Source: Papaver somniferum
Taxonomy: Eukaryota > Streptophyta > Magnoliopsida > Ranunculales > Papaveraceae
Reading direction: 5' to 3'
NCBI RefSeq assembly: GCF_003573695.1
Contig: NC_039367.1
Span: forward strand, 162,332,542 to 162,396,541
Length of the DNA: 64,000 nucleotides
Part shown: positions 1 through 16,461 of the stretch, piece by piece
Position numbering within the stretch: position 1 is the stretch's first letter
Layout: each line of letters begins with the position of its first letter
Position numbers and translations under genes: made by a program
The notes under the pieces: generated by a model
The model's database searches: none
What the model saw: the letters and a program-made list of their open reading frames with translations, nothing else
What the model was told of the DNA's origin: nothing

Positions 1-345
1 AGACTAGTTGTGTGATTGAGAGGCGGTGTTGAGAGAAAAGCCAATAACCGGAGTTTTCTGCTGAGAAGAGTTTGCCGTCACCACAAACAAATGGGGTGTT
101 ATGATTGTAGTTTTGATTTACAAATAGCTTCCAGATCAAAGAGAAGAAAGACACAGATCTTTGAAATTATCAGTCATTATATCCCCTTTGAGAAAATCTC
201 AAAGGGGATATAATGGTAAGATATGTAAAATAATGTTTTTTTGGTATTTTTTTCATGTTTTGTCTTAGCCCCCATAAAATTAAAATTCATGTTAATTTTT
301 CAATTGCAGGGATGTTAATTTTTTTTCATGTTTTGCCTGCATATC
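1..345 (+). repeat. Gene-like non-coding repeat, copy A, left part
   Basis: This segment matches, with many differences, the starts of two other segments in the window (about 8810 and 19375). All share a GAGGCGGTGTTGAG block followed by an 'acagatctttga'-type block. A polypyrimidine stretch and 'attgcag' at 300-309 could be a splice acceptor. The copy is cut at 345 by an LTR array and resumes at 7186. I recognise no protein. It may be the 5' leader and introns of a duplicated gene, or an unclassified repeat. Confidence 0.5.
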
Positions 346-762
346 TGATGCATAATGGTATTTCATATATACCATTTATGCCCTCTTATTTTGTATTTAC
401 TCTTTTACCCCCTTCTTTCCCTTATTTCCTACCTTTGTCCTTTTTTGTTTACTATTTATTGTTTAAACCCTAGCTCTTCTAGTTTTGAAGTTGGTTTGTT
501 TAGAAAAGTGGTGTAAGAACCCTAAAATCCTTCCTAGAGAAGACCCTCCAAGTTTTCAATTTGTAAGAGATGCATCTATTATCTTCAAGTTTTCAATCTT
601 AGAATTGGGTAGAAATTTGAACATTATTAAATAAGAACCTCAAATCTTTGTATCTCCTTGTTCCAAGGGTAAAAGAAGCATCATTTGAAGATTGGTTACT
701 TTTACTTCATGGTGTTATGTTATTTAACATCCAATTTCAATTATAAGTATTACTTTACATTA
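346..762 (+). repeat. LTR 1 of tandem array
   Basis: It begins TGATGCATAATGG and ends TTACATTA. At 417 bp it is about 36 bp shorter than the other three LTRs, because a block around the 'caacactttgttatttcc' segment is missing. It is preceded by ATATC rather than a purine tract, so it is the outer 5' LTR. Confidence 0.9.
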
Positions 763-764
763 GT

Positions 765-776
765 TGGTATCAGAGC
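765..776 (+). promoter_or_regulatory. Primer binding site, internal region 1
   Basis: TGGTATCAGAGC is the usual complement of the 3' end of plant initiator-Met tRNA. It lies two bases after the LTR. Identical sites follow LTR 2 (2905-2916) and LTR 3 (5045-5056). LTR 4 lacks one. Confidence 0.9.
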
Positions 777-1053
777 TTTGGTTTGATTTTTTGGGGGAAG
801 GTTTGGTAAAGATACTAATATCATTATCAAGTATTTTAGGTTGTGTTTCTTTTTCTTGGTAGTTTTCTTAAATTGGGTATTTCAATCTTATGGTGTTTTA
901 TTATGATATCAAAAAGAAGAATGAAAATGGATGGGGAAGTAAAAGTAAGTAATGTTCAAGTGAAGGGATTATTGATAAAATGAAATGATAAAAGAATGGT
1001 TAGATAGAATAAGACACAAGATGTTTAATGAAATTTGTAAGTAAAAGTAAGTA

Positions 1054-1905
1054 ATGGATGGGCATGTAATACTAAGTAAAGTTCAAGTAAAAGAATGGTT
1101 AGATAGAATAAGACACAAGATGTTTGATGAAATGTGTCAACTGGTAGAAGAGAAAATTAAGAAGTTGGAAGGTATTTATATGGACTCATTTGAACTCTCT
1201 AATGATTATGAAGATGAAATGGAGTTAAAGAATTCAATTTCTATTGGTGGGTATGAGAATAAAGAAGTTTCCTATAAGGTGTTTGATAAAATATCTCTAC
1301 CAAAATTTGATATTTTTTCAAGTTGTGAGGAAGGCGAGATTGGTGATAATATTTACTTCGATCCTACGTGGCCACCCATATTTGATGAAGAACCTAATAA
1401 GAAAATGGAAGAAGAGTTTACCAAGGGTTATCAAATACAAATATTGGGTGTCATAAACAAATACCCCATGCTTGAACTTGACGACGGTAATAGAGACACA
1501 AGGCATGACACATTCCAAACTACTTGTACCATGAGAAGAAAGGTAAGCAAGCTTGTTAATGATTCCAATAGTTATGTTTATGTCATATCCAAAAATGTCA
1601 TTCAAGAGATGAAATTTGAGAGAAAAATTCACCCAACAACAAGCTCTTTATCAAGTATTAGCAAAGAAAATGAAAAAATAACTTATGTTGATCCAACTTG
1701 GGCTTCCTTTGAAGACAAGTATAATAACGATAGTCACCATCCAAAGTTGGAAAAACTACTTGGTGTTTCTTTGCTTCTTAAGTGTGCACTTGAGTATCAC
1801 CATAAGAGGTTAGACTTGGTGAGTAATTATAAAGGAAGAAATCGTGGTCGAGTAGTTTTAAGAAGGGAAGTAGTTCAAGCACTAGGGAGTTTATTTTATT
1901 TTTAG
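1054..1905 (+). pseudogene. Gypsy-type polyprotein remnant, protease-like part, copy 1
   Basis: This 283-residue frame has an unrecognised charged N-terminal part (residues 1-130), which could be Gag-derived. A segment around residues 145-195 resembles the retropepsin region of plant Ty3/gypsy polyproteins (DTFQTTCTM...KLVNDSNSYVYVISKNV). The usual D-S/G-G active-site triplet reads D-S-N here, so proteolytic activity is unlikely. The frame stops at 1905. Compared with copies 2 and 3 it has lost one base near 1859, which breaks fusion to the integrase tail starting at 1911. About 100 bp upstream there is a diverged partial duplication of the start (about 926-1050). Confidence 0.7.
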
Positions 1906-1910
1906 AGAGT

Positions 1911-2438
1911 TTGAGGACATGTGACCAAGTTTTATGCAAGACGGAATTTGCTTACAACCATGCGGTGAACCGGAGTAGTGGTTATTCACCATTCATGGTG
2001 GTGTACGGGTTCAATCCAAGAGTACCACTTGACTTGTGTTTAGTACCGGATTTGAAAAGGCTAAATGCTAAGGCGAAAGACTTTTCTTTTCAACTCCACC
2101 TTATACATGAAAGAACTCGAAAGCATCTAGAAGCTTCATCAAGGAAATACAAGAACAAGGTCGATCAACGACGACGCGTGGTTGAGTTTGAAGTAGGAGA
2201 TCTTGTTTATACGGTTCTAACTAAAGAACGTTTTCCCATGGGTGAGCAAAACAAGCTTATGGCAAGGAATATAGGCCCTTTTGCAATTGGAGAAAAGATA
2301 AATGATAGTGCTTATCGACTCAACTTACCGACCTCAATTAGTACGCCCGACGTCTTTAATGTTAAGCACTTGGATCCATATTGGGGTGACAATGCTATGG
2401 ATGAAGAGATGGACAATTCGAGGGAGAATTTCACTTAA
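1911..2438 (+). pseudogene. Ty3/gypsy integrase C-terminal part, copy 1
   Basis: The 175 residues match the part of plant gypsy integrase that follows the catalytic glutamate. They run from an EFAYNHAVNRSSGYSPF segment, through the basic KYKNKVDQRRR stretch, to the DVFNVKHLDPYWG end motif. The D,D-35-E catalytic residues lie upstream in intact elements and are absent. The stop is directly before the polypurine tract at 2437-2449, the normal arrangement for a pol 3' end. The product would be inactive as an integrase. Confidence 0.85.
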
Positions 2439-2449
2439 GGAGGGAAGGA
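2437..2449 (+). promoter_or_regulatory. Polypurine tract before LTR 2
   Basis: AAGGAGGGAAGGA touches the first base of LTR 2. The same tract precedes LTR 3 (4577-4589), and a variant precedes LTR 4 (to 6730). This fits the plus-strand primer of LTR retrotransposons. Confidence 0.85.
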
Positions 2450-2902
2450 TGATGCATAATGGTATTTCATATATACCACTTATGACCTCTTATTTTTATT
2501 TACTCTTTTACCCCCTTTTTTCCCTTATTTCCAACCTTTGTCCTTTTTTGTTTACTATTTATTGTTTAAACCCTAGCTCTTCTAGTTTTGAAGTTGGTTT
2601 GTTTAGAAAAGTGGTGTAAGTACCCTAAAATCCTTCCTAGAGAAGATCCACCAACACTTTGTTATTTCCAATTTGTAATTGGGCAGAAATTTCAATTTGT
2701 AAGAGATGCATCTATTATATTCTAGTTTCCAATCTTAGAATTGGGTAGAAATTTGAAGATTATTAGATAAGAACCTCAAATCTTTGTATCTTCCTTGTTC
2801 CAAGGGTAGAATAAGCATCACTTGAAGGTTGGTTACTTTTATTTCATGGTGTTTTGTTATAATTTAACATCCAATTTCAATTATAAGTATTACTTTACAT
2901 TA
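2450..2902 (+). repeat. LTR 2 of tandem array
   Basis: At 453 bp it serves both as 3' LTR of unit 1 and 5' LTR of unit 2. It has a polypurine tract on its left and a primer site on its right. Confidence 0.9.
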
Positions 2903-3209
2903 GTTGGTATCAGAGCTTTGGTTTGATTTTTTGGGGGAAGGTTTGGTAAAGATACTAATATCATCATCAAGTATTTTGGGTTGTGTTTCTTTTTCTTGGT
3001 AGTTTTCTTAAATTGGGTATTTCAATCTTATGGTGTTTTATTATGATATCAAAAAGAAGAATGAAAATGGATGGGGAAGTAAAAGTAAGTAATGTTCAAG
3101 TGATGGGATTATTGATAAAATGAAATGATAAAAGAATGGTTAGATAGAATAAGACACAAGATGTTTGATGAAATGTGTAAGTAAAAGTAAGTAATGGATG
3201 GGCATGTAA

Positions 3210-4578
3210 TACTAAGTAAAGCTCAAGTAAAAGAATGGTTAGATAGAATAAGACACAAGATGTTTGATGAAATGTGTAAACTAGTAGAAGAGAAAATTAA
3301 GAAGTTGGAAGGTATTTATATGGACTCATTTGAACTCTCTAATGATTATGAAGATTAAATGGAGTTAGAGAATTCAATTTCTATTGGTGGGTATGAGAAT
3401 CAAGAAGTTTCCTATAAGGTGTTTGATAAAATATCTCTACCAAAATTTGATATTTTTTCAAGTTATGAGGAAGGCGAGATTGGTGATAATGTTTACTTTG
3501 ATCCTACTCGCCACCCATATTTGATGAAGAACCTAATAAAAAAATGGAAGAAGAGTTTACCAAGGGTTATCAAATACAAATATTGGGTATCATAAACAAA
3601 TACCCCATGCTTGAAATTGACGACGGTGATCGAGACACAAGGCATGACACATTCCAAACTACTTGTACCATGAGAAGAAAGGTATGAAAGATTGTTAATG
3701 ATTCCAATAGTTATGTTTATGTCATATCCAAAAATGTCATTCAATAGATGAAATTTGAGAGAAAAATTCACCCAACAACAAGCTCTTTATCAAGTATTAG
3801 CAAAGAAAATGAAAAAATAACTTATGTTGATCCAACTTGGGCTTCCTTTGAAGACAAGTATAATAACGCTAGTCACTATTCAAAGTTGGAAAAAGTACTT
3901 GGTGTTTCTTTGCTTCTTAAGTGTGCACTTGACTATCACCAAAAGAGGTTAGACTTGGTGAGTAATTATAAAGGAAGAAATCGTGGTCGAGTAGTTTTCA
4001 AGAAGGGAAGTATTTCAAGCACTAGGGAGTTCATTTTATTTTTAGAGAGTTTGAGGACATGTGACCAAGTTTTATGCAAGACGGAATTTGCTTACAACCA
4101 TGCGGTGAACCGGAGTAGTGGTTATTCACCATTCATGGTGGTGTACGGGTTCAATCCAAGAGTACCACTTGACTTGTGTTTAGTACCGGATTTGAAAACG
4201 CTAAATGCTAATGCGGAAGGCTTTTCTTTTCAACTCCACCTTATACATGAAAGCACCCCAAAGCATCTAGAAGTTTCATTAAGGAAATACAAGAACAAGG
4301 TCGATCAACGACGACGCGTGGTTGAGTTTGAAGTAAGAGATCTTGTTTATGCGGTTCTAACTAAGGAACGCTTTCCCAATTGTGAGCACAACAAGCTTAA
4401 GGCAAGGAAGATAGGACCATTTCCAATTGGAGAAAGGATAAATGATAGTGCTTATCGACTCAACTTACCGAACTCAATTCGTACGCCCGACGTCTTTAAT
4501 GTTAAGCACTTGGATCCATATTGGGGTGACAATGTTATGGATGAAGAGATGGACAATTCGAGGAATAATTTCACTTAA
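3210..4578 (+). pseudogene. Gypsy-type polyprotein remnant, copy 2 (protease-like part fused to integrase tail)
   Basis: This is the same chimeric region as copy 1. The first part is broken by stops near 3357, by a frameshift near 3510 and by further stops near 3686 and 3746. From 3748 to 4578 there is one 276-residue open frame, running from the tail of the protease-like region straight into the integrase C-terminal part. That shows the ancestral internal deletion joined the two regions in frame. The end motif HLDPYWG and the adjoining purine tract are kept. Confidence 0.75.
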
Positions 4579-4589
4579 GGAGGGAAGGA

Positions 4590-5042
4590 TGATGCATAAT
4601 GGTATTTCATATATACCACTTATGCCCTCTTATTTTGTATTTACTCTTTTACCCCCTTTTTTCCCTTATTTCCTACCTTTGTCCTTTTTTGTTTACTATT
4701 TATTGTTTAAACCCTAGCTCTTCTAGTTTTGAAGTTGGTTTGTTTAGAAAAGTGGTGTAAGAACCCTAAAATCCTTCCTAGAGAAGCTCCTCCAACACTT
4801 TGTTATTTCCAATTTGTAATTGGGTAGAAATTTCAATTTGTAAGAGATGCATCTATTATATTCTAGTTTCCAATCTTAGAATTGGGTAGAAATTTGAATA
4901 TTATTAGATAAGAACCTCAAATCTTTGTATCTTCCTTGTTCCAAGGGTAGAAGAAGCACACTTGAAGGTTGGTTACTTTAATTTCATGGTGTTTTGTTAT
5001 AATTTAACATCCAATTTCAATTATAAGTATTACTTTACATTA
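4590..5042 (+). repeat. LTR 3 of tandem array
   Basis: 453 bp, with a polypurine tract at 4577-4589 on the left and a primer site at 5045-5056 on the right. It is shared between units 2 and 3. Confidence 0.9.
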
Positions 5043-5333
5043 GTTGGTATCAGAGCTTTGGTTTGATTTTTTGGGGCAAGGTTTGGGAAAGATACTAATA
5101 TCATCATCAAGTATTTTGGGTTGTGTTTCTTTTTCTTGGTAGTTTTCTTAAATTGGGTATTTCAATCTTATGGTGTTTTATTTTGATATCAAAAAGAAGA
5201 ATGAAAATGGATGGGGAAGTAAAACTAAGTAATGTTCAAGTGATGGGATTATTGATAAAATGAAATGATAAAAGAATGGTTAGATAGAATAAGACACAAG
5301 ATGTTGGATGAAATGTGTAAGTAAAAGTAAGTA

Positions 5334-6719
5334 ATGGATGGGCATGTAATACTAAGTAAAGATCAAGTAAAAGAATGGTTAGATAGAATAAGACACAAGA
5401 TGTTTGATGAAATGTGTCAACTAGTAGAAGAGAAAATTAAGAAGTTGGAAGGTATTTATATGGACTCATTTGAACTCTCTAATGATTATGAAGATGAAAT
5501 GGAGTTAGAGAATTCAATTTCTATTGGTGGGTATGAGAATCAAGAAGTTGCCTATAAGGTGTTTGATAAAATATCTCTACCAAAATTTGATATTTTTTCA
5601 AGTTGTGAGGAAGGCGAGATTGGTGATAATGTTTACTTCGATCCTACGTCGCCACCCATATTTGATGAAGAACTTAATAACAAAAATGGAAGAAGAGTTT
5701 ACCAAGGGTTATCAAATACAAATATTGGGTGTCATAAACAAATACCCCATGCTTGAACTTGACGACGGTGATCGAGAGACAAGGCATGAGACATTCCAAA
5801 CAACTTGTACCATGAGAATAAAGGTAAGCAAGCTTGTTAATGATTCCAATAGTTATGTTTATGTCATATCCAAAAATGTCATTCAAGAGATGAAATTTGA
5901 GGGAAAAATTCACCCAACAACAAGCTCTTTATCAAGTACTAGCAAAGAAAATGAGAAATTAACTTATGTTGATCCAACTTGGGCTTCCTTTGAAGACAAG
6001 TATAATAACAATAGTCACCGTTCAAAGTTGGAAAAATTACTTGGTGTTTCTTTGCTTCTTAAGTGTGCACTTGACTATCATCAGAAGAGGTTAGACTTGG
6101 TGAGTAATTATAAAGGAACAAATCGTGGTCGAGTAGTTTTCGAGAAGAGAAGTAGTTCAAGCACTAGGGAGTTCATTTTATTTTTAGAGAGTTTGAAGAC
6201 ATGTGACCAAGTTTTATGCAAGCGGAATTCGCTTACAACCATGCGGTGAACCGGAGTAGTGGTTATTCACCATTCATGGTGGTGTACAGGTTCAATCCAA
6301 GAGTACCACTTGACTTGTCTTTAGTACCGGATTTAAAAAGGCTAAATGCTAAGGCGGAAGACTTTGTTTTTCAACTCCACCTTATACATGAAAGCACCTG
6401 AAAGCATCTAGAAGCTTCATCAAGGAAATACAAGAACAAGGTCGATCAACGACGACGCGTGCTTGAGTTTGAGGTAGGAGATCTTGTTTATGCGGTTCTT
6501 ACTAAAGAACGCTTTCCCGTGGGTGAGCACAACAAGCTTAAGTCAAGGAAGATTGGACCATTTCCAATTGGAGAAAAGATAAATGATAATGCTTATTGAC
6601 TCAACTTACCGACCTCAATTCGTACGCCAGACGTCTTTAATGTTAAGCACTTGGATCCATATTGGGGTGACAATGCTATGGATGAAGAGATGGACAATTC
6701 GAGGGCGAATTTCACTTAA
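5334..6719 (+). pseudogene. Gypsy-type polyprotein remnant, copy 3
   Basis: This is the third copy of the protease-like/integrase-tail chimera. A one-base shift near 5683 splits the first part into two overlapping frames (to 5756 and from 5524). Another shift near 6222 separates the integrase tail, which has stops near 6399 and 6598. The three copies share deletion endpoints, so they descend from one deleted parent rather than three independent losses. Confidence 0.75.
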
Positions 6720-6730
6720 TGAAGGAAGGA

Positions 6731-7185
6731 TGATGCATAATGGTACTTCATATATACCATTTATGCCCTCTTATTGTGTATTTACTCTTTTACCCCCCTT
6801 CTTTCCCTTATTTCCTACCTTTGTCCTTTTTTGTTTACTATTTATTGTTTAAACCCTAGCTCTTCTAGTTTTGAAGTTGGTTTGTTTAGAAAAGTGGTGT
6901 AAGAACCCTCAAATCCGTCCTAGAGAATAGCCTCCAACACTTTGTTATTTCCAATTTGTAATTGGGTAGAAATTTCAATTTGTAAAAGATGCATCTTTTA
7001 TCTTCTAGTTTCCAATCATAGAATTGGGTAGAAATTTGAAGATTATTAGATAAGAACCTCAAATCTTTGTATTTTTCTTGTTCCAAGGGTAGAAGAAGCA
7101 TCATTTGAAGGTTGGTTACTTTTATTTCATGGTGTTTTGTTATAATTTAACATCCAATTTCAATTATAAGTATTACTTTACATTA
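6731..7185 (+). repeat. LTR 4 of tandem array (outer 3' LTR)
   Basis: This 455-bp copy is preceded by a purine-rich GAAGGAAGGA tract. It is followed by ATATC (7186-7190), which repeats 341-345, instead of a primer site. It closes the array. Confidence 0.9.
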
Positions 7186-7970
7186 ATATCTGACATTACC
7201 AGCAACATTGGGTATCATGTTGGAGTGCTGAAATGTAAGAGCAGCAAAAACTTGAAGATCTGTATAATAACAAGCTTCTCACTCGCTACCTCAAAAACAT
7301 GGTTTTTCTAGTTAGCTATACGATTGGGACAAAGTATGTAACTGGATTTAGTTTTATAAAATTTCAGCGTGTATTCACATCTGACTCAGGTGGTATTGTA
7401 CTTATAACTTTCTCTTATTAGAATATAAAAGCATCAATTTGTAGCTTACATTTCATCTGTTAGGGAAAATTTTCTTTATGGGTGGACCTTATTAATTACA
7501 GGTTATTAGTTTAGTTTTTCTTCATCTGTAAATGTAGTTAGTGATAGTTACATTGCACATATTGAATTGCCTGTAAGGAAGATTTTTTAATTACATTGGT
7601 GAGGAATGTGTTTCATGTTGCAAGTCATCTAAATCTCGAAGCTATTTGCGTTACATTGAAATCGTGATTTGATGTGTTAGCTCTATTTGTGAAGTTATTT
7701 TTCAATACATAGAAAATCGGACTCCATTTGTCATTTCTCTGGACTTGGTAAAACATTGTTGTAAAATCATTTTTAATTTGTCAATATACTTATCATGCTG
7801 TATTTATCAACCAAACCCCAAGAATTTCAATTTATTCTTTTGCTTAATTTATAGGTGTAAATTGTTGAAGAAATCTTTGCTAGATAAAAATGTTAGTGAA
7901 AATGGAACAGAAATTTTTGGTACAAAATATTTCTTGGAAAAGGCTTTATGACACAACAAATGAAACTGCT
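7186..7970 (+). repeat. Gene-like non-coding repeat, copy A, right part
   Basis: This continues copy A after the LTR array. It aligns with 9095-10010 (copy B), sharing an 'attgggtatcat' block, an 'acaaagtatgtaa' block and a terminal block with 'acaaaatat...ggaaaaggct'. A stretch from about 7854 after a possible 'ttatag' acceptor reads openly to 7951 and may be a degraded exon. I do not recognise its product. Confidence 0.45.
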
Positions 7971-8759
7971 TTTATATAAAGATTATAACCTGTAAATTTT
8001 AACTAAATCACACGTTTAATTGAATACTGGCATATCGGTTCAGTGGTTATTTACTACTAGAAACAGTCACACCACGTTGGATATTACGCCTACCATGCTA
8101 TTTTAAGTGTAATCTCCTATGCACAATTTTAGTTGCAATTTTTCCTGAGATTAGATGCACGATTCCTCTGCCTTTGATACCGCGAGTTGAATTGTGTAGG
8201 GCAGTTTGTGATGTTACTTTTAGTCATTCTCGCATTGTTGTAAAAAATCAATTTTTCCTCGATTCTGATCAGCATCTGTAGAAGCGGGAATCCTCTTAAA
8301 CTCTGATGTGAAGCCTTTGTATTTCAGGGTATAGAGTAGTAGGGGAATACCATGTCGCATTGGAAGTAATTAGACAAGCCAATACTCCACCAGACCCTAT
8401 AAAATTGTGGCACCCCTACCATTTTATGCTAATAGTTACATACTTGCATCTTTTTGGAATTATAGATTTTATTCTACTATTTTGTTGTCTCTCCGAAACA
8501 GCTAATTTCAGAGCCTAATGTCTCGGTGAACTCAATGCATATTGAACACGAACATGAGGTTGATCCATGTAACTTCTAATCCAGCTAATCAAAATTTTGA
8601 ATAAGTTTCGGACCAAGTTCATAGTGTATTTGTATGTATTTCTACAATTTCTTACTTTTTTTTCTTTCTAGTATAAGAGCGCTTGCTCACTGAGGTGTAA
8701 TTAAAATATCCAGGGATCAGTTTAGGGGTGTTTTAGTAAATTACATAAATTTCCCTGAA
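7971..8759. other. Intergenic, no gene seen
   Basis: AT-rich sequence without a convincing frame, inverted repeat or recognised element. Confidence 0.5.
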
Positions 8760-10020
8760 TAAACCCTAAGGTCTCGGTAGATATGTTAGACAGAGAGAGA
8801 GAGAGCGGAGTAGACAACAAGTGTGAGTGAGGAGGCGGTGTTGAGGGTAAAACCAGTGGAGAGACTCAGATCTTTGATATCATCATAATGATTTCTCCTC
8901 TCAAATTTAAGTTTTTTTTATCTCCGAACTATATGGATATAAGAAACCCATCTCAAATCAATGCTTCTAGTAAGATCTCTAAATTAATGGTGTTATTCGA
9001 CGTTCATTGGTATTTCTATGCAGGGGTGTGCTCATAGATCTGGTGCAACTACAGCATCTTAAGCTGGAAAAATAAAACTGAGCTTCCTGTCACAACAAAA
9101 ATTGGGTATCATTTGAGTTTGCGCCATTGACGTGCTACAAATGTTGAAATGGAAGATCTAAATCATTTAGAAGCTAGCTTCATAATTCACTACCGCGAAA
9201 CTCATTTTTTAGCAATAGGATTGACAAAGTATCTAATTTATGTTTTAGTTTGAAAAATTTGAGGGGAGTCCTCGTATCAGATATGATTTAGGTAGTGTGA
9301 TTGTACTTGTAATTTTGAAATTTCAGGGTTCACAAAGAAAGTTTTGTTTAACAATTGAAAGGTAATCTTGCACCTGGTTCCTAAGATCTTTGAATTATTT
9401 ACAAAAGTTTAATTTAGATTTACTTTGATCTACAAATGTTCTTAGTGTATGATGATGATAGTTGCATTAGAAACATATTTTGGTGATGTTCCATAGTGGT
9501 TGTCCATAGTGTTTGATGCTGTAAATCTTCTACATCTCAGAGCTATTTATGCTTGAATTGAACTGATTCATTTTTATATTGAACTGATCCATTGTTATTG
9601 TTGAATCAGTTCTGTTTCAAAGTCTTACATTTGTGACTTGTCCAAATCAGTTTTGCCCATATCTTCCTATTACTTTGTCGTTAAATTAATCTCATTTCCA
9701 TTGTCAATCCTGTTTGCATAGCACATTAGTATGATCAGCCAAATGTTATTAGCTGGGGTTATAGATAATATAATTTTCTTTTTTGTTCTGATACATTGCT
9801 AGCTCTATTTTGTTGTCGATTCTGATCTGTAGAAGGGATGTAATACATATTGGTGCAGCTCTTCTCAAAGTTCCCATGCTTTTTGAAATGAAACAGTATA
9901 GCCAACCTTAGGTTGGATGGAAAGTTGGACGGCTGGTACAAATTTTCCACAGTATAGCGAACAAGTTTTAAGGACGGAGATGTTCTGTACAAAATAAATC
10001 TCTGGAGAAGGCTCCATGCC
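8760..10020 (+). repeat. Gene-like non-coding repeat, copy B
   Basis: This aligns closely with copy C (19330-20345) and more distantly with copy A. It starts near an (AG)n run at 8789-8806. It includes the GAGGCGGTGTTGAG block (8831), a 'tgcaggggtgtgctc' acceptor-like block (9020) and an 'agagctatttatgcttgaattga' block (9539). The last part (about 9960-10010) resembles the terminal block of copy A with shifts. The pattern fits a repeatedly duplicated leader/intron region of a decayed gene. The product is unknown. Confidence 0.5.
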
Positions 10021-10400
10021 TATGGTACTACAAATAAAAACTGTATATTTAAAGACTTAAAGGCCTAGACAAATAAAGCTCTCACGTTGAATGGTGAGTA
10101 AATCCTCGCTTCTTATTGGTCGAGACAAGCCTTTTTTTGAGTTTTTACCCAAATTTTTCTTCTAAACAATCTTTATAATTCTGAAAATTATCTTAATCAC
10201 TAAATAAAAGTTTTAATCCACTAATCCAAATTACTAACACTAATACGTAAAGGGTAAATTAGCCATTAAAAAACAATTTGGTTAAGGGGATATCTGATTT
10301 TGTTATTTCGCATCCCTTTTTGTCTTTATTCAGTATGCCTAGAAAGATATTGGTATGCCCAAAATCAGGGTTCATTAGAATTTAGTGATTCTTACATACT
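10021..10400. other. Intergenic, no gene seen
   Basis: AT-rich sequence between copy B and the inverted-repeat element. I see no coding or structural signal. Confidence 0.4.
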
Positions 10401-11881
10401 AAAAAAAGAACGATTTTTTGGGGACCATGATTTTTTTGGGGGACCATGGTTTTATTTTGGGTAAAGACATTAGAAGTAAATCTAGGTCACCCCTTATCTA
10501 GATATTTATATTAATACCTAAATTACCCTCCTGATTAATTTTGGACGATGATTAGTTAGTGTTAATAATAGTTAGTGTAATGATTAGTGAGATGATTAAG
10601 TTAAAGATAATTAGTAAGATTAAAAAATCAGATGTTTTTTTTTTTAAAGAAGTAGAATTATTGAGAGAGTAAAGTTAGAGAAGATGAAGAAGGAAAAAAT
10701 GAAAAACGATGGATTTTACTAACCACAACCGGAGGAAGGGTATTTGGGTACCCAGGTAGGCTTCAAACTAAGATAATGTTGGTTGAATTGCTCCAAACTT
10801 TCAAAAAAAAATGAAATTTTTTATGTAGATTTGGGCAAGTTCGGTTACCATATGTCAAGAACATGTAACCGAACACACCTGAAAGTGTAGTTCGGCTACG
10901 TTTTCCAAACACGCAGGTTACCAAACTCGCTCGTTAATAGAGGTTTTGGTCGTACAGTGTAATGTTCGGTTACCTAGGATAAAATGGTAGGTAACCGAAC
11001 TTTGAACTTAACAATTTATTTGGGTACATCTTGTGTGTTCGGTTAGTTCGCAAACTTCAACGCAACCAAGTTCCCAACTGAACTACAGGTTAAAAGTAAC
11101 CTAGTGTTAGAAGTTCGGTTGGTACGCAAACTTCAACATATTTTGCGAATCAACCGAACTGGTCTTATATATGCATATATGCAATTAGGCAAACGTTCGG
11201 TTGCTACGAAATTTATTTCTTGGCGAATTAGGTAGAGTTCGGTTACGAAGTTTCAAAGGTAGAGTTCGGTTACAAAGAAAACTTAACATTTTTGCGAACG
11301 AACCGAACTTGTGGACTTCTCATTATTTTCGTAAACTAAAGTTCGGTGATATCCTTATTTTGCGAAGAAACCGAACTTATGGACTTGTGTTGTTCTAATA
11401 CAAGGAGTTCGGTTAAAAGTATTTTTTTGCGAATCAACCGAACTCTGAGTTCGGTTAAGAAAAAATTAATTCTTGATAGCTGAACTTTTATCTGAAAAAA
11501 ACCCTCCATTAAACCTCTATGCAACTTCCATTTTCAACTAATTTTAATGATTACTTCTCATTTATTCAACCAAAAACGAATGACAAGTAATAGGTTTGTG
11601 AGAATATCTTTGTTAATGTTTTAAATTAAGCTATATATATATATATATATATTGGTGGTGGTTGGTGGTGGTGGTAATCGGAGGTGGTGGTGGTAATCGG
11701 AGATGGTGGGAGGTGGTGGTGGGAGGAGGTGGTGGTTATATATATAGGTGGTTATTGGGTTAGTTTTAAATTAAATCAGGTTAAGGTTAGGTTAGTCATT
11801 TCAATGCTTTAGGACACCCCTTATAACTATTGGGTAGGTGGCCTAATAGGACCATGGTCCCCAAAAAATCGTTCTTTTTTT
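10401..11881. mobile_element. Non-autonomous element with 29-bp terminal inverted repeats and a hairpin-array core
   Basis: The ends are perfect 29-bp inverted repeats: left 10401-10429, a run of A followed by GAACGATTTTTTGGGGACCATG-type sequence, and right 11853-11881. Both shoulders carry a CACCCCTTAT motif in the same orientation (near 10489 and 11815) and AT-rich TTAGT-type sequence. The core (10835-11450) is an array of hairpins built on GTTCGGTT/AACCGAAC. A (TA)n run (11631-11652) and a GGT-rich stretch follow. There is no coding frame and I found no clear target duplication. Related shoulders occur at 34800 and at 60890-61985. Mutator-like affinity is possible but unproven. Confidence 0.7.
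10834..11450. repeat. Array of GTTCGGTT...AACCGAAC palindromes
   Basis: At least six hairpins are readable: 10839-10874 (10-bp perfect arms), 10964-11000 (13-bp perfect arms), 11112-11160, about 11262-11310, about 11338-11380 and 11406-11446. Loops are about 10-30 bases and often contain a second, shorter inverted block (CGCAAA/TTTGCG). Extra single copies of GTTCGGTT lie between them. Arms are better conserved than loops. Confidence 0.8.
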
Positions 11882-12548
11882 TGTAATCCTTTGGTTTGCT
11901 TTGGTAATAAAAAATTTATGATTAAGCAAGAAAAAAAAAACACGTCATTATGATGAGATATATTTAAGCCCAAAATACAAGATTTACGGTTAAGATTAAT
12001 AGTTTAAGTCTTTAAGATTAGATTTATAATTCTACATTTTCAGATGGACTAATTTATCCTTAACTAATTATATATTATTAACAAAATAAAAATATGTTGA
12101 TGATGATCAATTAGTTATCGGCGTATAAGTAGGATCAGATTAATTTGTTACCATAAATTACGGCTAGTGATATTATTCTTTCTTCTAAAAATTAATCACC
12201 AAGATCCAGAGACATTATGGCTATGTTCTCTTTCTTCTCCGGTAGCACCATCCTTCATCACCACTGTAAGCTTCCAACAATGGTAATGCTATGAAAAATG
12301 TTTTTAGTTTCACTTGTAACCAAACTAGGTACTTCCTTTTATTTTATCGTATCATGATCAAACAGAACGAGGTTTTGCAAGCTTTTCTTTTTTGTAAAAC
12401 TGAATGAGCATCACGTATGCTTGATCCATAGAACTAAGATAAAACTTGTCTAGAGAAAAGCAATTGGATCAAGGTGTATGGATCCATAAATCAGGGTGTT
12501 AATATGGAGCGAGAGATTACTTAAATTGTTATGCAACTTTCATAGCAA
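11882..12548. other. Intergenic, no gene seen
   Basis: AT-rich sequence without a recognised feature. Confidence 0.4.
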
Positions 12549-12620
12549 CTAGTACGTAACCCGTGCTACGCACCGGGATGACGGGACCAGCCAATTTACT
12601 GTCCCGTGGTCAAATGCATT
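12549..12620 (-). mobile_element. Helitron-type 3' terminus
   Basis: Read on the minus strand, this ends with a GC-rich hairpin (CCCGGTGC-GTA-GCACGGG), a short spacer and CTAG, followed by T (the base 5' to 12549 on the plus strand is A). A hairpin plus CTRR inserted between A and T is the Helitron end signature. The element body would extend to the right, but I could not place its TC start. The plastid fragment at 12800 may lie inside it. Confidence 0.5.
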
Positions 12621-12799
12621 GATTTCTTTCTAATTAATCTTTGATTAGACTGATTTTTTTAGAGAAATAATAAACTATGATACTCTTTAGGTATCTAATG
12701 ATTTGACGATTGAAATTTGGTATGATAAACCTAAATTCACGTATTTGTTTCACCGGCATATATTAAGATAAACTAATGAAACGGTTCATTACTGGAAAA

Positions 12800-13050
12800 G
12801 CTAAAAGGTCAACTGGTCAAGTTTTACTACAATATATTATTTGAAATGTGTTTGGATAATATACTTTTTGAATTGACCACGGCTTCGACCACTCTTGAAG
12901 CTCGGCAATTAGTTAACCATAAAGATATTTTAGTTAATGATCATATGGTAGACATACCAAGTTATCATTGCCAACCCCGAAATATGCACCATGTAACTCA
13001 ATTCATGAGAAATACAAAACATCTAATTTACATGTCCAATTTTGCCTATG
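12800..13050 (+). pseudogene. rps4: Nuclear copy of plastid rps4 fragment
   Basis: This segment reads as the middle of chloroplast ribosomal protein S4. It starts with a TGQVLL-like segment and continues from 12846 as [20 protein letters not shown] and [18 protein letters not shown], the RNA-binding S4 domain. About half the codons after residue 50 have drifted, and alignment to rps4 is lost by about 13050. The surroundings are nuclear repeats, so this is a plastid-to-nucleus transfer (NUPT), not a working gene. A mitochondrial route is possible but the sequence is plastid-type. Confidence 0.8.
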
Positions 13051-14248
13051 ATTTATATAAGCATTATGAATTGTCAATGATTTGTCCAAGCGTTATGAAT
13101 TATTTTAATTGGCATGACATATACTGATTAGTATTTAATCTCATTTTATTGATTAGTTTAGCTGTGTGATTTTCTAACAACACAGTCTAAAAACATTCTA
13201 AACTCCTTTGATGAAGCGATTCAGAAAACTAATGTTACTCAAAAGTGGGTTAGATCTAAACATATCAACTGAACATGAATGATTCTTTGTTGCCATTTTA
13301 AGATTAAATTACTGAAAAGTTTAGTTTCTTATGCAGTTCTCCGTATGCCTTTTTTCATCCCGCCGGTCAAATCGCTAAGTATGCTTTGTAAATTGCTAAA
13401 TTATCTTCGTAAATCAGAAAATGAGGAGTTCTTATAGTGATGTTCCGTAAATTCCTAACATTCATGTAGGCTATGTAGCTTCAAATGAGTTACATGCTAG
13501 CCCTTATGGTCTCTCCTAGTGCATATTTGAATTGTCTTTCAGTCCTTTTTAGTCTTTCTTATTTTCTGATTTTTTTTTTCCGCTTTGAGTAATTTCTTTA
13601 AATTTTGAATGTTGTAGGGGTTGTTGAAATTTTTATTAAAGTTAACCAGGCATTATAATCTATTCCTTATCACGTCATTTTAAAATTTATATAATTTTCT
13701 TATCAATCCGTGATTTTGTTTTCTATTTCGAATAGTTGCACCCTTTGGATGTTTTTTTTCCTCATTGTTTTTTTTGGGTGAATTGCAGATTCTACAAACC
13801 TAGAAGCATTCAATTCTTGGCAGGACATTTGTTGTGCATGCTGACATATTAATGATCTCGGCAGTGGTATGCATTATATTCTCTCACAGAACTCTTTGAA
13901 TAAATGAATTGATGAGAATTTTAAAGCCGAAACCTTGAGTCTCTTGATTGAAAGAAGAAAATAACAATCATTAAATTGATTATGTAAACAAATCAATGCT
14001 TTTATGTAAACAAATCAATGATTACAAACCCTACTTGCATCGGCAAATATCAATGCTTACTCCAGCACCGACCTTAAACAACATGTTTCAACTCCAGCAC
14101 TAAATTGGCTACAAAATACGGCTATTCGTTGTTCTTTCTATCATGAAATAATAAGCACTTCCCCATTACCTCTCTCAAGGTACACAGTCTCATGGGTTGT
14201 CAACATGCGAGGAGTAATGCTCACTCTCAAAAGTGAGGGGTGGTAGTC
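13051..14248. other. Intergenic, no gene seen
   Basis: AT-rich sequence. A small direct repeat 'atgtaaacaaatcaatg' lies near 13985. I see no coding frame of substance. Confidence 0.4.
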
Positions 14249-14677
14249 ACTACACCAAATCAGACATTTTGTTACACTAATATGTGCGACATTTTATCTA
14301 TTATCACACTTATTAGTGTAATAAATATGGTGTTATTCTTTTGTTACACATTATTAGTCACACTAATAAGTGTGACTTTAATTAATTTAAATCACACTAA
14401 TAAGTATTGTCAAATCTCTTACATATATTAGCGTAACAAATTAGGCGGTAATTAAGAAAAAAAATATTTATTTTCCCCGCCCTGTTCTGGATTCATACAC
14501 CCGCTTTCCCCAAACCACCACATTGTGCATAATTTTAAAAAATAGTACCCAAAAAATTTAATAGAAATTAAATTAGTAAAAAAATTGTTCAAACATCAAC
14601 TAATATCCTCAACACTCTTAAAAGAATTGTTTAAACAATGAAAACTAACAAAAAACCATAAACTAAAACACTAAACT

Positions 14678-15164
14678 CTATCTAATAGTACTACTATGTA
14701 ACAAGGTAAACAAAGTTAAATTTTTAAATTGCAAATGCTTTTTATGCCATACTATCCAACCACCAGCAACAGAAGGAGATAGCTTATAGTAGTCATCCCC
14801 TTGAGGAGGGTCCCAAATTAGTGCAAAATCATCGTACACGCATTCTATGTTAACTTTTCTCTCGTTCTTTTGGACAATTATGTGGTGGTAGACTTCACCT
14901 TCCAAACCGGTCACCACATATCCAGCTGCAACTATTTTTTCCATTCCTGTCCAACAAATACACATTTTGATTTGAAGACTCTTCATAACCGGAATTGTCG
15001 AAAGGTTGTGGCTCTGACATGGTATTCAAATTCCCGGAAAAAGAATGATAGTCTGAAGTGAAGTCAGAATTAGGGGTACACGAATTATTCAAGATTGTCT
15101 CTTTGTTTGTCCGATGATCACTGGATATTTTTTGTTCCATGACCTGTAATGCAGTAGTACACAA
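14678..15164 (-). pseudogene. CACTA accessory-protein-like remnant
   Basis: The minus-strand frame 14986-14678 encodes a segment (VTGLEGEVYHHIIVQKNERK and on to GGWIVWHKKHL). It resembles the C-terminal domain found in proteins of plant CACTA elements (TNP1/Ptta/En/Spm type). A second overlapping frame (15164-14895) carries the upstream polar part, so a frameshift separates them near 14960. The assignment rests on overall pattern and location inside the element. No catalytic motif is visible. Confidence 0.45.
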
Positions 15165-15705
15165 TCAACATAAAGTCATAAATGCTTCAATATAAAGTTG
15201 CCATATATAATGTGTATTATCATTTCTTAGAATCTTAAAAGTTAACCTAATAACAAATACTGAGAAAAGGATAACCATGTAAGTTAACTTTTAGGATATT
15301 ACAGATCAGATCAAAACAAATAAAACAGAAAAGATGCATGAATTGAAACGTGGTGTGTGAAATATTAATGAAAAAATAAGAAAGGATTTTTAGTCAAAGT
15401 AGCCAAGATCTTACATGGGAGAGACTACCACCCTATAACAATTGTATGCCATTCAACATACATCTCATTTGAACTTTCAGTTTAACACGCACCGACATCA
15501 CAATTTTCACTGATAGTACTAAAGCAAGCCCTATGGGAGTGTTATAAGGTTGCAATTATTGAAGTACAAATTTGATGCGGGAGTTATAAGGTTGCAATCA
15601 TTGAAGTACAAGTCTGACTAACAAGTTGATCTTAGACAGTGATACAAAAGATAAGGCAACAATGAAACAAAAGGAACATGGTTATTATCATCAATTGCAA
15701 GTGTT

Positions 15706-15840
15706 GGGTTTACCTCTTTTAGTCCGATGACGGGAGAGTTGCATTTGTTAACTGTAGGATCGCAAAGAGCAGCAGTGAGGAATACTGTATTCAAAGCATG
15801 TTTAATGGCTTCAACTTTGGGCAAATGTTGCTCTCAAGCA
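15706..15840 (-). pseudogene. Possible CACTA gene exon
   Basis: A minus-strand open stretch (MPKVEAIKHALNTVFLTAAL and beyond) ends with 'aaaagag' followed by GTAAAC, a plausible splice donor. It may be an upstream exon of the accessory gene at 14678-15164. I do not recognise the sequence. Confidence 0.3.
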
Positions 15841-16461
15841 AATATTTGGTATCCACGCTCGAAACGTTCTGTACAAAATTAACTTATATATACAGATCAT
15901 ATTCATGACAGACACCATATCCGCATTCACATCTTGATAGATCTTCACAAGAGCAAATTCAAGTACTTGTGAATTTGACCTCTAATGCTCGAAAATTAAC
16001 CAGATAACATAATCCAATTCAAGGAAATATTAATATTATTCTAGATTGCAGAGCGATTATAAAAAAAGAACATACAAGTTAAGAGTGAAAAAACCAGGAA
16101 AATGCAAAAATAAGAAAACCAAAATAGAATATATATGTCTTAGAAGTTAGAACCCACACTTTTAAAGTAAGAAAATGTCCACTTTTTAATCTCTATAGAA
16201 TTGATGTCTGTCAACCGCTTAGTTAGGTTACTAAATTCAGTATTTGTCCACCTTAATGTTAGATGGCTGAACTTTCGATAACATCCGGTATTCAATGTGC
16301 CTGTAGACCTTTACATTCATTGTGTTTATAATTTCTGAATAGAGTTTTAAATGATACCTAGTGAACTGTATAGAGTATGTAGTACTTGTTGACAACCAGA
16401 AAGACACTGGGCATCTAGTAAATATTGTGTATGACATCCTAACAAGTACATTTTGCTGCAG

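What the first reader, a model, noticed from the sequence alone, without database searches (positions are those of the whole stretch)
341..7190. Four LTRs and three internal regions inside one target-site duplication
The array LTR-int-LTR-int-LTR-int-LTR has a single ATATC duplication at its outer edges, with intact primer sites and polypurine tracts at every internal junction. This shows one insertion site and later expansion by unequal LTR-LTR recombination, or insertion of a preformed concatemer. The three internal regions share the same large deletion. Tandem LTR arrays are known, but a clean 3.5-unit array with its duplication preserved is uncommon and gives a dated recombination series.
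Basis: seen in the sequence. Interest (0 to 1): 0.75.

Follow-up and report, generated by a model that had tools for sequence, protein, structure and literature searches.

The report
Tandem retrotransposon array from one insertion
One defective Ty3/gypsy-type retrotransposon landed once in a plant chromosome and later grew, step by step, into three head-to-tail copies sharing their end repeats; the architecture is already known in plants, but here the order of growth can be read from mutations.

Summary
Window 341-7190 is LTR-int-LTR-int-LTR-int-LTR (L4I3) inside one ATATC target-site duplication, with primer sites after LTR1, 2 and 3. The polypurine tracts before LTR2 and LTR3 are alike; the one before LTR4 has two substitutions. 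The element is a gag/pol-deleted Ty3/gypsy relative in an unnamed 2.7-Gb genome that looks like a plant's. Its internal deletion is not special to the array: dispersed two-LTR copies share it. A private junction lies in all three units, and a genome-wide pattern search at up to 3 mismatches lists no other match, so the units descend from one founder. Polarised mutations order the growth: internals 1 and 2 share 14 derived sites, 1 and 3 share 2, 2 and 3 none; LTR2 and LTR3 are the closest LTRs (9/452). This rejects an unaltered ready-made trimer and supports in-place growth at least from two units to three. Gene conversion could mimic it, and an inserted dimer is not excluded. Such arrays with one duplication, four-LTR ones included, are documented in maize and rice. 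New member of a known kind; modest interest.

The parts
341..345 (.). left target-site duplication ATATC
346..762 (+). LTR1 (417 bp; private deletion of about 36 bp)
763..2449 (+). internal region 1 (gag-like piece joined to integrase C-terminal piece)
764..776 (+). primer-binding site of unit 1
1031..1066 (+). array-private junction, copy 1 (1 mismatch to the searched pattern)
2437..2449 (+). polypurine tract of unit 1
2450..2902 (+). LTR2
2903..4589 (+). internal region 2
2904..2916 (+). primer-binding site of unit 2
3171..3206 (+). array-private junction, copy 2
4577..4589 (+). polypurine tract of unit 2
4590..5042 (+). LTR3
5043..6730 (+). internal region 3
5044..5056 (+). primer-binding site of unit 3
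5311..5346 (+). array-private junction, copy 3
6184..6187 (+). family deletion junction (gag-like / integrase C-terminal) in unit 3; the same point lies near 1904 in unit 1 and 4044 in unit 2 (by offset)
   Evidence: alignment of internal 3 to L025, L014 and L027
6718..6730 (+). polypurine tract of unit 3, two substitutions relative to the other two
6731..7185 (+). LTR4
7186..7190 (.). right target-site duplication ATATC

Best explanation
A single gag/pol-deleted Ty3/gypsy-type element with a private internal junction integrated once and made the ATATC duplication. At or soon after insertion it became a two-unit array sharing a middle LTR. Later a crossover (or an equivalent duplicative exchange) between misaligned units on sister chromatids or homologues duplicated the block internal 1 + LTR2, giving three units and four LTRs. 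Shown: one duplication, one founder, unit 3 splitting before units 1 and 2, LTR2 and LTR3 being the youngest LTR pair. Inferred: that the exchange was unequal crossing-over, and whether the first doubling happened in the chromosome or in the cDNA.
For: A single ATATC pair at family-typical LTR boundaries. The private junction is found in all three units and at no other listed place at up to 3 mismatches; only the 3 array units cover the whole 398-bp 5' internal query, 40 of 152 candidates being scored. Polarised on 12 other copies over the 3' 1.4 kb, internals 1+2 share 14 derived sites (11 where at least 83% of the outgroup rows agree), internals 1+3 share 2, and the 2 sites labelled 2+3 carry different bases in the two units. 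Ultrafast bootstrap 100 for (u1,u2) and 100 for the three units together. LTR2-LTR3 differ at 9/452 sites against 21/417 for LTR1-LTR4 (Fisher p 0.016). LTR2+3 share 4 derived sites, and at a fifth (site 200) they share a T found in 3 of 35 outgroup LTRs while LTR1 has another base; bootstrap 99. The paralogous locus 7 kb upstream has both flanks in order and no match to the family.
Against: Raw internal distances alone do not separate 1-2 from 1-3 (60 versus 72 of 1686, p 0.33); the case rests on polarised sites. LTR2-LTR3 (2.0%) looks younger than internals 1-2 (3.6%), p 0.10, where one event predicts equal ages. Raw LTR distances do not set the array apart from a foreign LTR: L010b is 3.8-4.6% from the four array LTRs, about as near as they are to each other except for LTR2-LTR3; array LTR monophyly has bootstrap 94 on a short branch. 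In the first 290 bases of the internal, 10 columns vary among the units and none gives a clear shared-derived pair. A mosaic internal 2, the direct signature of a crossover inside the internal region, is not significant (p 0.31). Gene conversion between units would give much the same pattern. No reads or other accessions were available.
Confidence: 0.78

Rival explanations
1. A preformed dimer (from template switching, a read-through or circle-derived transcript, or cDNA recombination) inserted; only the step to three units happened in the chromosome. This is a variant of the best explanation, not its opposite.
For: No derived base is shared by the middle LTRs with LTR1 alone or with LTR4 alone, so the first doubling is not separable in time from insertion. 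LTR1-LTR4 (5.0%, 95% range 3.1-7.7) and internal 1-3 (4.3%, 3.3-5.4) overlap. Both routes are held open in the literature.
Against: Nothing positive points to it; an early crossover fits equally well.
Confidence: 0.3
2. A preformed trimer inserted whole and was later partly homogenised by gene conversion (internal 1 with 2, LTR2 with LTR3).
For: Conversion among repeats produces pairwise similarity; the LTR and internal ages are mildly discordant (p 0.10).
Against: It needs conversion over an internal and an LTR, which is less simple than one duplication; an unconverted trimer would give a star tree.
Confidence: 0.1
3. Two or more separate elements inserted near each other and recombined, losing the DNA between them. 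The maize Wukong paper favours this for multi-LTR elements.
For: The family has many dispersed copies; L010b is as near to the array LTRs as most of these are to each other.
Against: One duplication with matching outer halves, and a junction seen only in the array and in all three units.
Confidence: 0.04
4. Segmental tandem duplication of a flank-plus-element block, as at C10:97.41M.
For: It happens in the same family: at C10:97.41M five LTRs are each preceded by the same ~660-bp segment with no match to the other fetched loci, ending in GTTTA.
Against: In the window the inner LTRs are bordered by polypurine tract and primer site, and the repeats found in 1-9000 lie inside the array.
Confidence: 0.01

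Closest known systems
Tandem LTR-retrotransposon structures of rice (TLI1, TLI2; Morales-Diaz et al. 2025, PMC11899658)
   Same: Alternating LTRs and internals sharing inner LTRs inside one short target-site duplication; mostly gypsy; 28 clear tandems in Nipponbare, 10 of them with perfect 5-nt duplications
   Different: The two rice loci worked through have two units; [quoted passage not shown] Here unit mutations order at least the second step.
Tandemly arrayed TRIMs of maize (Zma-SMART, PMC4717578) and Wukong (PMC4528315)
   Same: L3I2 and L5I4 arrays with single 5-bp duplications; Wukong elements with three, four, six and seven LTRs, the majority with duplications
   Different: TRIMs are under 1 kb without retrotransposon proteins; this unit is 2.14 kb and keeps gag-like and integrase pieces.
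Cassandra long tandem arrays (PMC7215508)
   Same: Shared-LTR arrays; recombination and template switching both proposed
   Different: Cassandra LTRs hold a 5S rRNA-like sequence and the authors observe no differences among the units of its arrays; here units differ by about 4%.
Non-autonomous deletion derivatives (LARD-like) of Ty3/gypsy
   Same: LTR, primer site and polypurine tract kept with most of pol missing, dispersed in several copies
   Different: The units are short (2.1 kb) and keep coding remnants; the label LARD is recalled and was not tested.

Membership tests
Tandem (shared-LTR) LTR-retrotransposon array | alternating LTRs and internals, starting and ending with an LTR | tested here: met
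Tandem (shared-LTR) LTR-retrotransposon array | one target-site duplication at the outer edges only | tested here: met
   inner LTRs are bordered by polypurine tract and primer site
Tandem (shared-LTR) LTR-retrotransposon array | not an assembly artefact (spanning long reads) | not testable with these tools
   no reads; 60-73 substitutions between internals argue against an artefactual duplication
Ty3/gypsy LTR retrotransposon | gag, RT, RNase H, integrase in that order in longer relatives | tested here: met
   one longer relative, L027, scanned frame by frame: Retrotrans_gag, RVT_1, RNase H, H2C2 and rve in order; its integrase frame matches the Ty3 Gag-Pol chain 7q5b best
Ty3/gypsy LTR retrotransposon | array units homologous to such a relative | tested here: met
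   82-85% aa identity over 73 residues to the L027 integrase frame (units 1, 2) and 42-43% to the L027 gag frame (units 1, 3); SH3_Tf2-1 in units 1 and 2
Ty3/gypsy LTR retrotransposon | named plant lineage (Tekay, Athila, Retand and so on) | not tested
   no lineage tree was made
TRIM | element under about 1 kb, no coding sequence | tested here: not met
   2.14-kb unit with coding remnants
Canonical LTR ends TG...CA | LTR starts TG and ends CA | tested here: not met
   the four LTRs run TGATG...CATTA, as do most other copies listed

The most novel reading that the evidence does not exclude
The array is a single-locus record of three successive recombination modes: a reverse-transcription template switch that made a chimeric founder, insertion possibly already as a dimer, and then a crossover inside the internal region that left internal 2 as a mosaic (5' part like unit 3, 3' part like unit 1). 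It belongs to a family prone to tandem growth in this genome.
Probability: 0.15. Interest if true: 0.45.

Novelty: new member of a known kind. Interest (0 to 1): 0.3.

Why it matters
Plant tandem LTR-retrotransposons are reported to be common, but whether they insert as concatemers or grow in place was left open in the 2025 rice study. An older array with about 4% unit divergence and several outgroup copies lets unit mutations order the growth; here they indicate that the last unit was added after an earlier split. The same test could be run on other such arrays in a genome.

Tried and rejected
Assembly duplication: rejected, internals differ by 60-73 substitutions. Collapse of further units: not testable. 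Mosaic internal 2: with a cut at column 735, which I picked by eye, the left part puts units 2 and 3 closest (14 differences, against 20 and 21) and the right part puts 1 and 2 closest (40, against 51 and 59); but the breakpoint search chose another place (between columns 273 and 376) and its permutation p is 0.31, so it is not claimed. Deletion as an array-specific event: rejected, shared by dispersed copies. Eight-base duplication (ATATCTGA): the next three bases of the right flank equal the LTR start; family boundaries and polypurine tracts support five bases. Clean empty site: not found; the paralogous locus L030 keeps both flanks in order without the array but differs too much to show the exact site. 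Host gene: not identified; a Pfam scan of 6 ORFs elsewhere in the window and the ORF list for 7186-16000 (not scanned) gave no gene at the insertion. Pfam D12 methyltransferase hit on a unit-3 ORF (E 0.0034, below cut-off): taken as chance.
Full report
What is there. The window is bases 162332542-162396541 of contig C10 in an unnamed 2.7-Gb genome. A mannose-binding lectin ORF and a weak, below-cut-off plant mobile domain suggest a plant. Window 341-7190 holds four direct LTRs (346-762, 2450-2902, 4590-5042, 6731-7185) and three internals of 1687, 1687 and 1688 bp. ATATC borders both ends. The primer site occurs three times, exactly, in a search that allowed one mismatch. The polypurine tract is the same before LTR2 and LTR3 and has two substitutions before LTR4.

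The boundary is real. Of 16 other loci of the family tabulated by script, 12 have an exact 5-bp duplication at the same TGATG...CATTA ends. L017 is exact with its LTR end shifted by five bases, L013 and L018 have one mismatch, and L022 has none (its 5' neighbour is a polypurine tract). L029 and the three-LTR locus at C7:66.18M (CCCGC), read apart, are exact too. Chance for one such match is about 0.0017. L009 and L025 show only one LTR in the fetched stretch and were not tabulated.

What the element is. Relatives with LTRs about 4.9 kb apart exist (L020, L023, L027). L027, the one scanned, carries gag, reverse transcriptase, RNase H and integrase domains in Ty3/gypsy order in separate open frames. 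The array units keep a gag-like piece (42-43% aa to the L027 gag frame) joined to the integrase C-terminal piece (82-85% aa over 73 residues). The same join is seen in dispersed two-LTR copies: L010, L012, L013, L016-L019, L021, L022, L024, L028 and L029. The deletion therefore predates the array.

One founder. The 5' internal part of the array units matches type-A copies (such as L010, L013, L017) over about 224 bp and then type-B copies (such as L029), with a short repeated stretch at the join. The array LTRs are closest outside the array to L010, L013, L012 and L011, whereas the 3' internal part is closest to L029, whose LTRs match at 91-92%. So the founder looks like an A/B chimera, as template switching would give (inference). 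A 36-base pattern over the private join is listed three times in the genome at up to 3 mismatches, all in the array. In one search only the three units cover the full 398-bp query; 40 of 152 candidates were scored, and the next longest match covers 276 bases at 84%.

Order of growth. Distances (K2P): LTR1-4 0.052, LTR1-2 0.050, LTR2-4 0.048, LTR1-3 0.042, LTR3-4 0.041, LTR2-3 0.020; internals 1-2 0.0365, 1-3 0.0440, 2-3 0.0446. With 12 other copies as outgroups over the 3' 1.4 kb of the internal, 96 columns vary among the units: 27 derived in unit 2 alone, 24 in unit 1, 24 in unit 3, 14 in units 1+2, 2 in 1+3, 2 labelled 2+3 (different bases, so not shared) and 3 in all three (of these, one has units 1 and 2 alike and one has units 1 and 3 alike). 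Three of the 14 rest on split outgroups. In the first 290 bases 10 columns vary; none gives a clear shared-derived pair, some because the outgroups are split or absent. Copies fetched by then but left out of the alignment: L022 (internal duplication), L011 (solo LTR) and the longer types L014, L015, L020, L023, L025, L026 and L027. With 35 outgroup LTRs, LTR2+3 share 4 derived sites; at site 200 they share a T that 3 of 35 outgroups also have while LTR1 has C; the single sites labelled 1+2 and 1+3 carry different states, and none groups the middle LTRs with LTR1 alone or LTR4 alone (L024 and the interrupted 3' LTR of L026 were left out). ML trees (HKY+G) give ultrafast bootstrap 100 for (u1,u2), 100 for the three units, 99 for LTR2+3 and 94 for the four array LTRs together. 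Treating sites as independent, the binomial probabilities are 1e-5 for 14 of 16 and 2e-4 for 11 of 13 clean sites.

Reading. The simplest history is insertion, an early two-unit state, then duplication of internal 1 + LTR2. A duplicated block predicts that internals 1/2 and LTR2/3 are the young pairs, which is seen. At a rate of 1.3e-8 per site per year (recalled, from grasses) the insertion is about 1.9 My old (1.2-3.0), the first split about 1.65 My and the second 0.8-1.4 My. The host's rate is unknown, so only the order counts. Results against: raw internal distances alone do not separate the pairs (p 0.33); LTR2-3 looks younger than internal 1-2 (p 0.10); the LTR L010b is as near to the array LTRs (3.8-4.6%) as most of these are to each other; and the mosaic expected from a crossover in the internal is not significant (p 0.31). 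Conversion can mimic the pattern.

Other arrays. A whole-genome exact pattern for inner LTRs gives 6 hits at 4 loci: two here, two at C7:162.65M, one at C1:184.33M and one at C5533:4.378M. The looser LTR-primer pattern gives 36 hits, these 6 included. Exact patterns miss diverged copies, so these are lower bounds. The C7:162.65M locus is a five-LTR, four-internal array of a shorter sister with one split LTR and a truncated last LTR, so its duplication cannot be read. C7:66.18M has three LTRs in one CCCGC duplication. C10:97.41M is different: in the stretch read, one LTR is cut by the edge, five LTRs are each preceded by the same non-element segment and GTTTA, and the last has a polypurine tract, so it is a segmental duplication.

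Known or new. PMC11899658 (parts 1-4 of 6 read) reports such tandems as common in plants and leaves the mechanism open. PMC4717578 (passages) reports L3I2 and L5I4 TRIM arrays with duplications. PMC4528315 (passages) reports maize elements with three, four, six and seven LTRs, the majority with duplications, and favours recombination between adjacent elements. PMC7215508 (passages) discusses recombination and template switching. Three literature searches were made, of which I opened these four papers; I do not claim that an ordered growth series has never been published. The architecture is known; the added value is an ordered growth series at one locus.

Noticed in passing
L033 + L026 (G000:C10:97401400-97420999): A tandem array of about 2.26-kb period in which each unit carries ~660 bp of non-element DNA, an LTR and a partial internal, with GTTTA before each of five LTRs: segmental duplication around one insertion; units 0.3-3.5% apart, with two sets of identical LTRs.
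   Followed up: partly
L032 + L034 (G000:C7:162650500-162666400): Five LTRs and four internals of a further-deleted sister element (about 1.7-kb unit) with polypurine tract and primer site at inner junctions; one LTR is split and the last is truncated.
   Followed up: partly
L014 + L015 (G000:C7:66180000-66197900): Three LTRs inside one CCCGC duplication with unequal internals (about 6.5 and 2.5 kb); the first LTR is not followed by a primer site.
   Followed up: partly
L022: 5764-6758 and 6755-7749: A 995-bp internal duplication that is 100% identical, either very recent or an assembly artefact; the element's 5' LTR directly follows a polypurine tract.
   Followed up: no
window 12780-13127 (+): An open frame that looks like a plastid rps4 C-terminal fragment by eye (recalled motif), possibly plastid DNA in the nucleus.
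   Followed up: no
window 179-215: An inverted repeat in the left flank, seen by eye; the left flank also matches its own reverse strand at 93% over 175-215.
   Followed up: no
window 1-345 and 7186-7600: Both flanks match a low-identity family with clustered copies (such as C22163 and a copy 7 kb upstream at C10:162325454); the gene was not identified.
   Followed up: partly
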